From contig JANQFB010000533.1 of NCBI GenBank assembly GCA_028278085.1, positions 1 to 32,342 of the forward strand: a stretch of 32,342 nucleotides of DNA, written 5' to 3'. The DNA comes from Chitinophagales bacterium. GTDB taxonomy: Bacteria; Bacteroidota; Bacteroidia; Chitinophagales; JANQFB01. The position numbers and the translations under genes were made by a program. A model generated the notes under the pieces. That model was not told the origin of the DNA. It saw only the letters and a program-made list of their open reading frames with translations, and searched no databases. The stretch's first letter is position 1, and each line of letters begins with the position of its first letter. Positions 10,840 through 25,409 of the stretch are shown here, in pieces.

Positions 10840-11818
10840 TACGATACTTGGCGTTGTCAGGATCGGTGATGAATTGATTGTCGAGCGCCTGCTTGATGGT
10901 GCGGATCCCATCCGGTACACGCATGGTGATCCTGAAATCCAGCTTATCCCTGATCTTATCGAAGTTGACCCTGTAGTCGCGGGGATCTTCATCCTTTTTT
11001 ACATAGGATATATTGGCATCGGGTATCTGATCGCTGATCTCGTTAACGATCATTTGCTTGGTATAGTTTTCATTGGTATCGCCCACATTGAATACATCAA
11101 AGGCCACCTGTTCATCCGTGGCATTAAATACGGCGATCACCGACCTCGACAGATCCCTGACATGACAGTAGGGCCGCCAGAATTGTTCCCCGAAGATGAC
11201 CAATTCCCGGCCCAGGGCCAGTTCTCGTGTAAATTCGTTGACCGTCAGGTCGAAGCGGATCCGGGATGATAGGCCATAAACCGTCGAAAACCGGAGACAG
11301 GTCGGTTTACAGGTATTGTTTTTATCCTGGCCCAACAAATACTTTTCGATCTCCACCTTGGTTTCGGCATATAAGGAAACCGGCGCTAACTCGGAATCTT
11401 CCCGGACAAAAGCATTCGGATCCTTCATTTTCCCGTAATTGCTGCAGGTAGAGGCGAAGACAAATTTTTGCACACTCATCTCATTGGCCAGATCATAGAC
11501 CATCCGGGTACCGTCGAGGTTGATACTGCGGGCCAGATCGGGTTGCTTGGCACAGGCCGGGTCACCGACAATTGCGGCCAGGTGAGCGACATAATCGATC
11601 CCTTCCAGGGCCTTTCTCACATCGGCTTCTTCCCGCACATCCCCTTTCAGGAATTCGATCCGGTCATGGTCGAGCAAGTCGATCACCGGCTCACCACCGA
11701 ACATCAGCATATCCAGGATCCTGACATGGTAGCCATCTTCCAGCAATAGCCTGACCAATACGCTTCCGATATAACCGGCGCCACCGGTTACCAATACTTT
11801 TTTGTTTTTTAAAGTCAT
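10832..11818 (-). CDS. NAD-dependent epimerase/dehydratase
   Basis: KKVLVTGGAGYIGSVLVRLLLEDGYHV; HLAAIVGDPACAKQPDLARSINLDGT; SLYAETKVEIEKYLL. ATG at 11818 preferred over 11887. Confidence 0.85.
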   Translation of the reverse strand: MTLKNKKVLVTGGAGYIGSVLVRLLLEDGYHVRILDMLMFGGEPVIDLLDHDRIEFLKGDVREEADVRKALEGIDYVAHLAAIVGDPACAKQPDLARSINLDGTRMVYDLANEMSVQKFVFASTCSNYGKMKDPNAFVREDSELAPVSLYAETKVEIEKYLLGQDKNNTCKPTCLRFSTVYGLSSRIRFDLTVNEFTRELALGRELVIFGEQFWRPYCHVRDLSRSVIAVFNATDEQVAFDVFNVGDTNENYTKQMIVNEISDQIPDANISYVKKDEDPRDYRVNFDKIRDKLDFRITMRVPDGIRTIKQALDNQFITDPDNAKYRNV

Positions 11819-19352: not shown

Positions 19353-20396
19353 TCATGCCAAAATTTTTTCTAATTCTTCCAAACCATGTTCAAAAGTTTT
19401 GGACACATATGAAAATCTTTCCTTCATTTGCGGTCCCAGTAATTCGGTGTAACGTTCTTTTGTTCCATTGGTATCTGGATTGATAACACAGAATTTTCTA
19501 ATCCTTGTTCTACTGTTAGTTCCAAGCGAAAATAAATATTTAAAAAAAGCATCAGTTTCGGGCAAGGAATAACCAATCACGAATATGTTTTTTGCCTTTG
19601 ATAAACAAGCAGATGCCTTGTTCCAGATATTCGAAATTGATTTATGATACATCGTTTTATTCCAAGTGGGTGGAACAATGAAGGGAGTAATATTTGGATA
19701 TTGATTTGGAAAATAATCTGAAATGTATTCATCAAAAGAAAATGTCGTTGTTTCATTCATTTGCACATTTAATAACCCAAAACTCCAATTTTTGAAAAAA
19801 TCGGTAATATAATGTGGTGTTACAATGTCATTCCTATCCTGGTACCAATTCAATGATCCATGCAGTTTTAGTAATGGAAACTTCTTATCATCAGGGCTAA
19901 TGTAATATTGAAACTTAATCCGTTCATTTGTAAGAGCAACATCAATTCCAAGGTCATAATTGAAAGTTATTATGGCAGATTTCTCTTTTTGATCTTTCAA
20001 AAGTTTAACGAATTTAACATAACTGCCAATTGGCGATATTTTATTCGTATCAAGTAGCTGAAATTTCATAGTATGTACAAGGGTTTCAGCTATCATTTTC
20101 TTGTAGGTATTTTGTAATGATCTAAAATCAAGTTCATTTTGATTAATTGGATATTTTAGAATTTCCGACATTTCAAGTAATCCTAAAACTGACTCGATAT
20201 TGTTAAGATCAATGTTCGCCTTAGATTGAATACTATTCAAAGATGTGATAACGGAAAACAACTCTTTTATCTCTTCAGGTTCCTGATAAGCATCCTGTGC
20301 CAGTAAATCTTCTGCCCTATCCAGAAAGTTATTCATGACCGGGGCTCCTGCGTCAACCGATGCACCCGCACCCAAAATAAAAAGGTTTTCAATCAC
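19353..20396 (-). CDS. SIR2-like (SIR2_2) domain protein, putative NAD-consuming effector
   Basis: FILGAGASVDAGAP nucleotide-binding motif; IITFNYDLGID; LLKLHGSLNWY; IFVIGYSLPETDAFFKYLF. GTG start. Confidence 0.85.
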   Translation of the reverse strand: MIENLFILGAGASVDAGAPVMNNFLDRAEDLLAQDAYQEPEEIKELFSVITSLNSIQSKANIDLNNIESVLGLLEMSEILKYPINQNELDFRSLQNTYKKMIAETLVHTMKFQLLDTNKISPIGSYVKFVKLLKDQKEKSAIITFNYDLGIDVALTNERIKFQYYISPDDKKFPLLKLHGSLNWYQDRNDIVTPHYITDFFKNWSFGLLNVQMNETTTFSFDEYISDYFPNQYPNITPFIVPPTWNKTMYHKSISNIWNKASACLSKAKNIFVIGYSLPETDAFFKYLFSLGTNSRTRIRKFCVINPDTNGTKERYTELLGPQMKERFSYVSKTFEHGLEELEKILA

Positions 20397-20483
20397 AATT
20401 ATTTTCTTTTAGGTATAGCGTTACAATAAAAAGTGTTTGTGTCCCCTTTGTCAAAAGTGATTTTTATTGATTGTTGGAATCTT

Positions 20484-23060
20484 TTAATATTCTACTTTTT
20501 CAATTTGCTCCTTTACAGATAGTATTTCTTCAAGAGTTTTATTGAGTAGTTGTGAAGAAGGTTCAATTGAATCTTGCTTAATTGCGCTAGCAACAATTTC
20601 AATTTTTTCCAAATGTGATTTGTCGCTATTAAAAAGACTCAACACTTTCTGATTAAATTGCGATACGGAGTTTTGATAAATGTTAACAAGTTTATTAAGC
20701 CTTTCTTTGAATGCAATAATGGAGTTATGGTTATTGTGTAAGTGTGTTCCTTCAAGTTTAGACAAGAGCATTTCTTCATTTTGAAGCCATTTGTCTTTAA
20801 TTCTACTTGCAATTTCTTTTTGACGTGCTTCATTCTGTTCCTTAAAATTCTTTAATAACTCATCTGCTTGTGAATTATGAATCGCATAAATCTGCTTTTT
20901 AAAATCTTCAATTCTGTTAATTCTGAGTTTTTCAAATTTGTCAAAGGCTCTAATGATTAATGCAGCAACTATACTGACAATAACAGCAATACCTATGTTA
21001 GTAAGTAAACTCGTTGACATTTTAATATGAGAATAGTTCTTAAAAACATAAGCAAGACCAATTAAAACAAAAGGTACAAATATTGCAATTAGATATTTAA
21101 TTCGTCTTTGTTTTTTAAGTTTGATAATATCTGACCTCAAGGTTGCTAATTGGGCTTGAACATTTGTAATAAGGTTGTTGAAGACATTAGAAATGAAGGA
21201 GTTAATCTGGTCATCTTCAAAGTTATTTCCATCTACAACCTCAGAATTCAATTCTTCATGAAAACTAAAATCCGGGCTTGAATTAATCAGGTCTTGTTCA
21301 AACTCATCTAAACCAGATTCAGGTTGTTTAATGCTTTCCAAAAATTCGTTTGAAAATTCTTCATAGTTTCCACTCAATTCCTTCTCCGTTTCTGAGTTGT
21401 ATTTATTTCGACTAATTCCAGAAGCTTCCAATTTATCAAATTCTGACGCCAGTCCAAGCTCTCCAACTATGGTTCTAACCTCAAAAGAGAAAACAGCCGA
21501 ATTGTACATTTCAAGTGCTTGATAGTAAACATCCATCACCACTCTTAATGCCTCTCTGTACTTGAGGATATTGTCATTGGTAGGATCAAGTGGTCTTTTT
21601 GCTAGAAGAACTTTCTTAAATGTTTTAAGTTGGTCTTTCAATATGCTATAATCAGACAATGCTTTACGCCTGAAAGATTCAAAGGCTTCATTTAAATACG
21701 TTTCTTGATTATAAGGAAAGTTAAGTGGATGTTTAAAACTCGTTTCATCCCTAAGATTTTGACTGGATATGGATAATGATTGAAAATCAATCGCTTCTAA
21801 AATCTTTTCCTTAAGATCAAGAGTTTCAACTTGAACCTGACTTTCAAGTTCCCTTATTATTTTACTAGCCAGAAATGCTGATTCTTCATCTATTTTTTTT
21901 CTGATTTTCTGCCTAAAAGACAGCAAATCTCCCGAGTCTTTGAACGATTTAATAATTTCTATATCTTCTTTAATACGTTGAAGACTATTCTCAACCTGGC
22001 CAAATATTCCAGAGAATACCTGCACGTTTTCATTCCATAATGATCTTAACTTAATTTTACTAACATCAATTTGATCATCGAAATATTCACTATTATCTTC
22101 TGCTTTTTCAATCAAGATTTTACAATTGTCGATTTTGGAGTTTGCCAGAGCCAAAAAGTAATCATGTATTCTCTTGATTTCCTTTCTAAAATAATTCAGC
22201 TTGTGATTGTGGAGTATTACTAAATTTTCAGAATTCTTTTTTGCTAGTGATTTTAATCTGTTACTAAGTTCTGAGATATTGAAATTGCTTAAATTATCAA
22301 TCAGAATAAAATCTTCTGTTTTAAATTCACCTAAAGGAATGGTCTCGGAGATTCTGTTGATAATTACTTGCAATTCCTTTTGGTATTTGGTGAAATCAAA
22401 ATTCTCTTGGGTAAGTTCTACACTTCTTGATTTTCGAAATTCATCTCCTCTCGTCAAAACAAAAATTAGAGGTATGTCTTTTAACTTATCTTGCTGAGCA
22501 ATCAAGAATGGACTATCAATAGTGGTGAATGGGGCTGTAGAATTTAATGTATATATAATCAAGTCACATAATGGTAGACTATCTCGGACGATCTCTTCAA
22601 TTATATTAGGATCACCTGAACCAGGTGTATCCATTAGTACAATATTTTCCAAAAATTCAGATTGAAAATTTGTCTTTGTCCTAATTGGAATTGTCCCTTC
22701 CTTGGAAAAAGTAAAAACATTTTCAACGTTTGTATCATTGGTTATTAACGTGATATGATCATCTGTAGGGTTGTTCCCAGTAGCTCTTTCATTTTTAGAA
22801 CCTCTTATTCCCAGGAGGGAGTTTATAGTACTTGATTTCCCTGAACTGTAGCTTCCCAAGAATCCAATATATAATAGACCGACTTCCTTTTTCTTATATT
22901 GTTCGAGACTATTGGAAATACTCGTCAGTTCTCTGAAATAGTTGTTACTTTCTGCACGGGAATTCAACTCAAGAACCTTAGATGGGGCTTCATGATCCAA
23001 AGATTCTAGGAGTGCTCCTAAAGAATTTGCTAATTCTTTTGTGATCTCATCTGTTATCAT
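20484..23060 (-). CDS. Dynamin-like large GTPase with C-terminal TM hairpin
   Basis: G1 GFLGSYSSGKSSTINSLLG; G3 LMDTPGSGDPN; G4-like FVLTRGDEFR; long coiled-coil helical regions; TM pair YLIAIFVPFVLIGLAYVF / LLTNIGIAVIVSIVAALII. Confidence 0.85.
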   Translation of the reverse strand: MITDEITKELANSLGALLESLDHEAPSKVLELNSRAESNNYFRELTSISNSLEQYKKKEVGLLYIGFLGSYSSGKSSTINSLLGIRGSKNERATGNNPTDDHITLITNDTNVENVFTFSKEGTIPIRTKTNFQSEFLENIVLMDTPGSGDPNIIEEIVRDSLPLCDLIIYTLNSTAPFTTIDSPFLIAQQDKLKDIPLIFVLTRGDEFRKSRSVELTQENFDFTKYQKELQVIINRISETIPLGEFKTEDFILIDNLSNFNISELSNRLKSLAKKNSENLVILHNHKLNYFRKEIKRIHDYFLALANSKIDNCKILIEKAEDNSEYFDDQIDVSKIKLRSLWNENVQVFSGIFGQVENSLQRIKEDIEIIKSFKDSGDLLSFRQKIRKKIDEESAFLASKIIRELESQVQVETLDLKEKILEAIDFQSLSISSQNLRDETSFKHPLNFPYNQETYLNEAFESFRRKALSDYSILKDQLKTFKKVLLAKRPLDPTNDNILKYREALRVVMDVYYQALEMYNSAVFSFEVRTIVGELGLASEFDKLEASGISRNKYNSETEKELSGNYEEFSNEFLESIKQPESGLDEFEQDLINSSPDFSFHEELNSEVVDGNNFEDDQINSFISNVFNNLITNVQAQLATLRSDIIKLKKQRRIKYLIAIFVPFVLIGLAYVFKNYSHIKMSTSLLTNIGIAVIVSIVAALIIRAFDKFEKLRINRIEDFKKQIYAIHNSQADELLKNFKEQNEARQKEIASRIKDKWLQNEEMLLSKLEGTHLHNNHNSIIAFKERLNKLVNIYQNSVSQFNQKVLSLFNSDKSHLEKIEIVASAIKQDSIEPSSQLLNKTLEEILSVKEQIEKVEY

Positions 23061-23091
23061 AGTAATATGAGAGGTTTTCCTTAATGATTAT

Positions 23092-23139
23092 TAACATTCC
23101 GGCTAAACTGCGTTTTAATGCAGTTTAGCCGGAATGTTA
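23092..23139. repeat. Perfect 20-bp inverted repeat (8-nt loop) between the helical-protein gene and the dynamin-like gene
   Basis: taacattccggctaaactgc - gttttaat - gcagtttagccggaatgtta, read directly. Confidence 0.95.
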
Positions 23140-23147
23140 GCGGTATT

Positions 23148-23765
23148 TTATTTTAACAATTTCATCCGAGCTTTAGCATACGCAGAAGTAACTGCTGTCC
23201 ATCCATTTTTGACGTTTTCGTTTACCGTATACATTTTATATCCTAAGTCATCACCTACTAATTGTCCGCTTTCCGTTCGATACTTATAGACCATTGACAT
23301 GGCAGGGTACTTGGCTGTGGAATTCTCCTTCAAAGTAAATTCAGATTCCTTCATGAAATCCAATAAATCTGAAAAATGACCATGATACGTTCTAAACATC
23401 CCAGAAGCTGACCCTAAATAATTTCGAACGGAAGTAAAAAATTCAGATGCTTCACTCGGTAACCTACTTAATTCATCTTCATTAAATGCCTTTGCCATTT
23501 CATGAGCTTTTATTCTCAAATATTCCAGTTCGGATTTTTTCTTCTTGACAATTTCATTCATCAAATCAGTTGAATGTGGTATGTGGCGATATTCCTCAAG
23601 CAGTTTTTCGAAACTTTCAGTGTAGTTATTGTGAATAGTAGTTAAATCCAGAAAAATCGGCTCAATATGATCTTCAAATAAACGTCTTTGTGATTCCCGG
23701 CTTGATTTGGCGAGGTTAATAATACTGTCCAAAATATGAAGTGCATCTGATATCATGATTGTCAT
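23148..23765 (-). CDS. Hypothetical helical protein, first gene of the SIR2/dynamin cluster
   Basis: 205-aa ORF with helical Lys/Glu-rich N-terminal two-thirds; same strand and spacing as the downstream genes; no family recognised. Confidence 0.75.
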   Translation of the reverse strand: MTIMISDALHILDSIINLAKSSRESQRRLFEDHIEPIFLDLTTIHNNYTESFEKLLEEYRHIPHSTDLMNEIVKKKKSELEYLRIKAHEMAKAFNEDELSRLPSEASEFFTSVRNYLGSASGMFRTYHGHFSDLLDFMKESEFTLKENSTAKYPAMSMVYKYRTESGQLVGDDLGYKMYTVNENVKNGWTAVTSAYAKARMKLLK

Positions 23766-23787
23766 TTTTTAATTACCGCTAACATCC

Positions 23788-23811
23788 GAATAAAGTGCAT
23801 GCACTTTATTC
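23788..23811. repeat. Perfect 24-bp palindrome upstream of the SIR2/dynamin cluster
   Basis: gaataaagtgcatgcactttattc equals its own reverse complement. Confidence 0.95.
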
Positions 23812-24024
23812 ATACTATAAGTATAATAGTTCTGTTATTTGACAAGTAACTATAAAATTTAAATATACAGTTTTTTCATATATATATATATAATCTAGCA
23901 AAAATAATGCAAATTGAACACAAATTTTATTACAAGAAATCTATAGAATTGATACAACGAAAAGTGCCCCCCTAAACCATTGTCCGTCCCTGAAATAGGT
24001 TGACCGCAAAACCGGTCAACAAAG

Positions 24025-25376: not shown

Positions 25377-25409
25377 CAAAACGGTCAACACTAATCAGGG
25401 ACGGACACA

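What the first reader, a model, noticed from the sequence alone, without database searches (positions are those of the whole stretch)
19353..23811. Candidate undescribed defence system: helical protein + dynamin-like membrane GTPase + SIR2 NADase-like effector
Three minus-strand genes (205 aa, 858 aa, 347 aa) lie with 87-bp gaps between them, in a visibly AT-rich segment between unrelated chromosomal genes and next to an IS3 element. SIR2-domain proteins are established NAD-depleting effectors in several anti-phage systems (e.g. DSR, Thoeris ThsA, SIR2-HerA, SIR2-pAgo). Bacterial dynamin-like GTPases are also linked to phage defence and membrane repair. I know of no named system combining a SIR2_2 effector, a single TM-anchored dynamin-like GTPase and this helical protein. 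Inference: the GTPase and helical protein could sense membrane or phage assembly events and license NAD depletion.
Basis: partly seen in the sequence, partly recalled or inferred. Interest (0 to 1): 0.88.

Follow-up and report, generated by a model that had tools for sequence, protein, structure and literature searches.

The report
Orphan SIR2–dynamin pair beside integron-like cassette
The three genes are real and sit in a foreign-looking, AT-rich insert, but they do not form a recurring three-gene defence system: the first gene looks like a separately inserted integron-type cassette, the SIR2 gene belongs to a widespread stand-alone family of probable NAD-destroying enzymes, and the dynamin-like gene has no detectable relatives outside its GTPase domain.

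Summary
In detail: three minus-strand genes, HEL (205 aa), DYN (858 aa) and SIR2 (347 aa), with two 87-bp gaps and 32-35% GC against about 46% around them, lie next to an IS3-type element. DYN has the GTPase motifs but two TM segments, not one. SIR2 keeps the catalytic Asn and His. The three-gene system is not supported. HEL is bracketed by a 12-nt inverted repeat, and the HEL-DYN gap is a hairpin with the geometry of an integron cassette boundary: circularised, HEL is a 688-bp cassette whose junction closes a perfect 26-bp stem. The 52-bp leader in front of HEL recurs once in the genome, before an unrelated AT-rich DUF4238 gene that ends in an attC-like site. SIR2 has 39 close homologues (29-41% identity) across many phyla, with no shared neighbour. 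No homologue of DYN or HEL lies within 8 kb of any of 85 SIR2 loci. Most likely this is an acquired, probably anti-phage insert assembled from independent pieces: a stand-alone SIR2_2 NADase candidate, an orphan dynamin-like membrane GTPase and an inserted cassette. A DYN-SIR2 two-gene unit cannot be excluded, because DYN has no relatives to test.

The parts
19353..20396 (-). SIR2: stand-alone SIR2_2-type protein, 347 aa; GAGAS 9-13, N146-Y-D148, L-H179-G
   Evidence: PF13289 2.8e-5; PADLOC SIR2/Aga_SIR2 5e-16; N146, D148, H179 invariant in 36 sequences
20484..23060 (-). DYN: dynamin-like GTPase, 858 aa, G1 GSYSSGKS 69, G3 DTPG 144, G4 TRGD 203, two TM segments 654-672 and 685-703
   Evidence: PF00350 7.4e-8; motifs and hydropathy; no relatives beyond the G domain
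23148..23765 (-). HEL: helical protein, 205 aa, no family
   Evidence: no Pfam, PADLOC or NCBIfam family above threshold; low-confidence all-helical model, pLDDT 68; no PDB fold match at E<=0.001
23095..23782 (-). HEL cassette as it would be excised (688 bp), from G|TTAGCGGTA to ...GGAATG|TTAATAAT
   Evidence: 12-nt perfect inverted repeat across the gene flanks; circular junction closes a perfect 26-bp stem
23092..23139 (-). attC-like palindrome in the HEL-DYN gap (20-bp stem in situ, 26 bp when circularised); no U-tract after it on the coding strand, so not a canonical terminator
   Evidence: DNA fold z = -8.7 in situ, -12.9 circularised
23768..23819 (-). Hairpin leader GAATAAAGTGCATGCACTTTATTCGG.TG|TT directly upstream of HEL; second copy (88%) upstream of an unrelated DUF4238 gene on contig C215
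23978..25407 (+). IS3-type insertion sequence next to the AT-rich segment
   Evidence: terminal repeats 23981-24006 / 25382-25407; rve and HTH_Tnp_1

Best explanation
A horizontally acquired AT-rich insert assembled from independent pieces, probably serving phage defence. HEL is a one-gene integron-type cassette inserted directly after a hairpin leader and in front of DYN-SIR2 (shown: boundary geometry and shared leader; inferred: insertion by an integron integrase). SIR2 is a member of a widespread stand-alone SIR2_2 family and most likely hydrolyses NAD+ with Asn146/His179 when triggered by infection, causing abortive infection (shown: family and residues; inferred: activity and trigger). 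DYN is a membrane-inserted dynamin-like GTPase that most likely acts on the inner membrane by itself, as B. subtilis DynA does when it delays lysis (inferred). DYN and SIR2 probably share a transcript, having no boundary between them, but functional coupling is not shown.
For: HEL boundaries: 12-nt inverted repeat TACCGCTAACAT (1 of 300 shuffles reaches it; 1 of 629 same-geometry positions in the window), 26-bp stem at the circular junction, fold z = -12.9. The leader recurs at C215:12901-12952 (E 9e-12) before an unrelated DUF4238 gene at about 28% GC, whose 3' end (C215:11739-11873) folds when circularised into paired R and L boxes with a large loop, as attC sites do; z = -2.6. SIR2: 39 close loci without any recurrent neighbour family; no DYN or HEL BLAST hit in 1,230 ORFs of 85 loci. 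N146, D148 and H179 invariant in 36 homologues. Profile matches in the PDB are SIR2 proteins 8w9l, 8yhx and 8j4u. Dynamins in phage defence: PMC8844932. Integron cassettes as carriers of defence genes: reviewed in PMC12409362.
Against: No complete integron integrase was found: TIGR02249 gives no hit over cut-off, only Xer-like genes and a fragment on C521. No CGCTAAC...GTTAGCG array exists in the genome, nor a stricter form in 396 phylum genomes. The HEL boundary stem is perfectly paired, without the bulged bases usual in attC. No attC-like fold follows SIR2 (z = -0.04). No NADase or anti-phage assay of this SIR2 subfamily was found. No classical defence genes flank the window insert.
Confidence: 0.55

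Rival explanations
1. DYN-SIR2 is a genuine two-gene defence unit: the membrane GTPase senses phage-induced membrane damage and switches on the SIR2 NADase; HEL is only an inserted passenger.
For: Adjacent, same strand, 87 bp apart, matching low GC, no boundary repeat between them. SIR2 effectors elsewhere work with a partner, e.g. SIR2-HerA (PMC12700824 and its references); the closest solved structures are SIR2-like proteins.
Against: The SIR2 family is stand-alone and has no dynamin next to it in 39 close or 85 total loci, apart from one divergent, unrelated dynamin in L131 that is missing beside the related SIR2 in L121.
Confidence: 0.22
2. All three genes form one undescribed defence system, with HEL as a sensor or regulator.
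For: Same strand, two 87-bp gaps, shared AT-rich composition.
Against: Cassette boundary between HEL and DYN, no co-occurrence, and no HEL relative better than E about 0.001 in 396 genomes.
Confidence: 0.08
3. The HEL flanks are not integron sites but another mobile or regulatory palindrome, such as an operator or terminator pair carried by AT-rich inserts.
For: Perfect palindromes, no integrase, no attC array; the leader palindrome sits just before a start codon in both copies.
Against: The C215 copy ends in a site with attC-like R/L box architecture whose R'' box pairs with its own cassette start; the HEL junction closes at exactly G|TT.
Confidence: 0.15

Closest known systems
SIR2_2 (PF13289) antiphage sirtuins: SIR2-HerA, DSR1/2, ThsA, SIR2-APAZ/pAgo
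   Same: Rossmann GAGxS, catalytic Asn and His; best PDB profile matches are SIR2-like proteins (8w9l, 8yhx, 8j4u)
   Different: Single-domain protein of about 350 aa with no HerA, Argonaute, TPR or SLOG partner; matches known models only weakly (NF042942 24.6 of 500 bits)
Bacterial dynamin-like proteins: DynA (B. subtilis), LeoA/LeoBC (Eleos)
   Same: Dynamin GTPase motifs, long helical body predicted, membrane segments
   Different: Only the G domain is recognisable (LeoA model 26 bits, LeoBC 14 bits); single gene, no LeoBC partner
Integron gene cassettes carrying anti-phage genes (Darracq 2025, Kieffer 2025, cited in PMC12409362)
   Same: Small one-gene units bounded by folded recombination sites; AT-rich foreign genes
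   Different: No integrase and no array found; boundary stem perfectly paired
DUF4238 candidate defence gene (PF14022)
   Same: Sits behind the same hairpin leader in the same genome; DUF4238 is listed among anti-phage systems in PMC10855318
   Different: Unrelated protein; no match in the PADLOC version used here

Membership tests
SIR2_2 / antiphage sirtuin-type NADase | SIR2_2 domain above curated cut-off | tested here: met
   PF13289 24.7 bits against cut-off 24.5, marginal
SIR2_2 / antiphage sirtuin-type NADase | Conserved NAD-site motif and catalytic Asn/His | tested here: met
   GAGAS, N146, D148 and H179; all but the variable fourth motif residue invariant over 36 homologues
SIR2_2 / antiphage sirtuin-type NADase | NAD+ hydrolysis on infection | not testable with these tools
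   needs an assay
SIR2-HerA | HerA ATPase partner next to SIR2 | tested here: not met
   no HerA-like gene beside SIR2 in the window; no recurrent neighbour in 39 homologous loci
Eleos (LeoA + LeoBC) | LeoA and LeoBC proteins together | tested here: not met
   one dynamin gene, G-domain match to LeoA (8.7e-7) and weak to LeoBC (0.005)
Bacterial dynamin-like protein | Dynamin_N GTPase domain with G1, G3, G4 motifs | tested here: met
   PF00350 33 bits against cut-off 27; motifs
Bacterial dynamin-like protein | Dynamin fold (neck, trunk, membrane paddle) | tested here: inconclusive
   AlphaFold2 model too poor, pLDDT 37, no alignment available
Integron gene cassette (HEL) | 3' attC whose outer arm pairs with the cassette's own 5' end at G|TT | tested here: met
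   26-bp stem at the circular junction
Integron gene cassette (HEL) | attC asymmetry (bulged bases, R and L boxes) | tested here: not met
   perfect stem without bulges; the C215 DUF4238 site does show R/L boxes
Integron gene cassette (HEL) | Integron integrase or attC array in the genome | tested here: not met
   no TIGR02249 hit over cut-off; no array pattern; genome is a 590-contig draft

The most novel reading that the evidence does not exclude
DYN and SIR2 form a new two-gene abortive-infection system in which a two-TM dynamin-like GTPase that senses membrane damage activates a SIR2_2 NADase, carried on an insert into which an integron-type cassette (HEL) was later recruited.
Probability: 0.2. 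Interest if true: 0.65.

Novelty: new member of a known kind. Interest (0 to 1): 0.35.

Why it matters
It shows that an apparently tidy three-gene operon with equal gaps can be an assembly of independently moving pieces, so equal spacing is no evidence of a system. It also points to a widespread stand-alone SIR2_2 subfamily (present in many bacterial phyla and archaea) with intact NAD-site residues that is not well captured by the NCBIfam and PADLOC models used here, and to integron-type cassettes carrying defence-candidate genes in a genome that lacks a visible integrase.

Tried and rejected
Co-occurrence of DYN and SIR2: BLAST of DYN/HEL and a dynamin HMM against 1,230 ORFs of 85 SIR2 loci; the single dynamin found (L131) is divergent in orientation and unrelated outside the G domain, and the related SIR2 in L121 lacks it. 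DYN relatives: none in plasmids, viral contigs, genome contigs, 396 phylum genomes (almost only G-domain hits) or 130 relatives. HEL relatives: only weak coiled-coil-like hits; fold search gave nothing. attC array pattern in own genome and phylum: none. A one-off leader-like match in G415 lies inside a gene and is chance. attC after SIR2: no fold. Self-repeats around homologous SIR2 genes (e.g. L079, L094) were not clear attC sites. Bacteroidetes-type promoter consensus on the minus strand: no match. AlphaFold2 of DYN: unusable. Papers naming a SIR2-dynamin system: three papers hold the terms SIR2, dynamin and anti-phage; only PMC10855318 was read for these terms, and it lists dynamins and SIR2 systems separately.

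Full report
WHAT IS THERE. The three ORFs are as described: SIR2 19353-20396, DYN 20484-23060 and HEL 23148-23765, all minus strand, both gaps 87 bp. They are 32-35% GC, with GC3 27-33%, against 41-49% GC in neighbouring genes. An IS3-type element with HTH_Tnp and rve genes borders the segment. A DUF998 gene lies on the other side.

SIR2. It passes PF13289 by a hair (24.7 against 24.5 bits) and matches PADLOC SIR2 models, best 5e-16. A scan of GTDB genome contigs gave 80 loci and a scan of viral contigs 5 more. In 39 of them the protein is closely related (BLAST score at least 140 bits, 29-41% identity), in hosts from Bacteroidota, Bacillota, Proteobacteria, Omnitrophica, Nitrospirae, Acidobacteria and archaea. 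In a 36-sequence alignment G9, A10, G11, S13, N146, Y147, D148, H179 and G180 are invariant. A profile search of the PDB returns three SIR2-like proteins (8w9l, 8yhx, 8j4u), which from my own knowledge include the SIR2 subunits of SIR2-HerA complexes. The protein is therefore very probably a NAD-consuming SIR2_2 enzyme; activity was not tested.

Its partners. Among neighbours within three genes of the 39 close homologues no family recurs beyond two or three loci. BLAST of DYN and HEL against 1,230 ORFs of the 85 loci gave nothing. A dynamin HMM found a single dynamin (L131, Pelotomaculum), divergently oriented, unrelated to DYN outside the G domain, and not present beside the related SIR2 of L121. 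So this SIR2 family is stand-alone. The Vibrio plasmid relative (L015) lies among small genes next to catB9, which looks like a cassette array from its annotation.

DYN. Dynamin_N and G1/G3/G4 motifs, two hydrophobic segments at 654-672 and 685-703. No full-length relative was found in 396 phylum genomes, 130 nearer relatives, plasmids, viral contigs or genome contigs. The absence of co-occurrence is thus informative for the SIR2 side only. A two-gene DYN-SIR2 unit unique to this lineage remains possible.

HEL. No family, no homologue better than E about 0.001 in 396 phylum genomes, low-confidence helical model.

The cassette boundary. On the minus strand HEL is preceded by ...GAATAAAGTGCATGCACTTTATTCGGATG|TTAGCGGTAATTA and followed by TACCGCTAACATTCCGGCTAAACTGC-ATTAAAAC-GCAGTTTAGCCGGAATG|TTAATAAT. 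A 12-nt perfect inverted repeat therefore flanks the gene; 1 of 300 dinucleotide shuffles reaches it, and 1 of 629 same-geometry positions in the window. If the unit is excised at G|TT on both sides, a 688-bp circle forms whose junction is a perfect 26-bp stem, z = -12.9, against 20 bp in situ. That is the logic of an integron cassette. The 52-bp leader has one other copy in the genome (C215:12901-12952, 88%, E 9e-12), upstream of an unrelated AT-rich DUF4238 gene (PF14022, 1e-24). The 3' end of that gene (C215:11739-11873) folds, when circularised with its own start TTGGCAGTT, into two paired boxes separated by an internal loop around a large loop, the architecture of attC. DUF4238 is listed among anti-phage systems in PMC10855318. 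No such boundary lies between DYN and SIR2, and none was found after SIR2.

Weak points. No integron integrase over the curated cut-off and no attC array were found, though the genome is a 590-contig draft. The HEL stem lacks the bulged bases of typical attC. The integron reading of HEL is likely, not proven.

MECHANISM. Most likely: infection triggers the SIR2 NADase and the cell stops growing (inferred from the family; PMC12700824, reviews NADase antiphage sirtuins). DYN probably acts on membranes; DynA of B. subtilis delays phage lysis (PMC8844932). HEL is an independently recruited gene. Integron cassettes are a known reservoir of anti-phage genes (Darracq 2025 and Kieffer 2025, as reviewed in PMC12409362).

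VERDICT. The three-gene defence system is not supported. The parts are new members of known kinds. Interest is modest, with a 20% chance of a genuinely new dynamin-SIR2 unit.

Noticed in passing
G000:C215:11739-12952 (L158): DUF4238 gene at about 28% GC behind the same hairpin leader as HEL, ending in an attC-like site whose outer box pairs with its own start.
   Followed up: yes
G000:C215:9411-9707 and 10913-11527 (L158): Two separated pieces of DUF1016/YhcG PDDEXK nuclease genes downstream of the DUF4238 unit; the second has PADLOC PDC-S02 matches and appears to be frameshifted or truncated at its start.
   Followed up: partly
G000:C521:2092-2550 (L055): Truncated tyrosine recombinase (152 aa), the best C-terminal match in the genome to the integron integrase model, without its N-terminal half.
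   Followed up: partly
L015 (Vibrio sp. HDW18 plasmid) 905-2038: Distant SIR2 relative (26%) among small genes next to catB9, looking like an integron cassette array by annotation.
   Followed up: no
L131 5274-8921 (Pelotomaculum): Double-GTPase dynamin (807 aa) divergently next to a distant SIR2_2 gene; the related SIR2 locus L121 has no dynamin.
   Followed up: partly
L054 / L017 (G291:C78): A SIR2 homologue (37%) overlaps a large P-loop gene upstream (587 aa in L089), a possible different SIR2 partner.
   Followed up: no
window 23869-23897: Long (TA)n run and AT-rich stretch upstream of HEL, a possible promoter region; no Bacteroidetes-type promoter consensus matched.
   Followed up: partly
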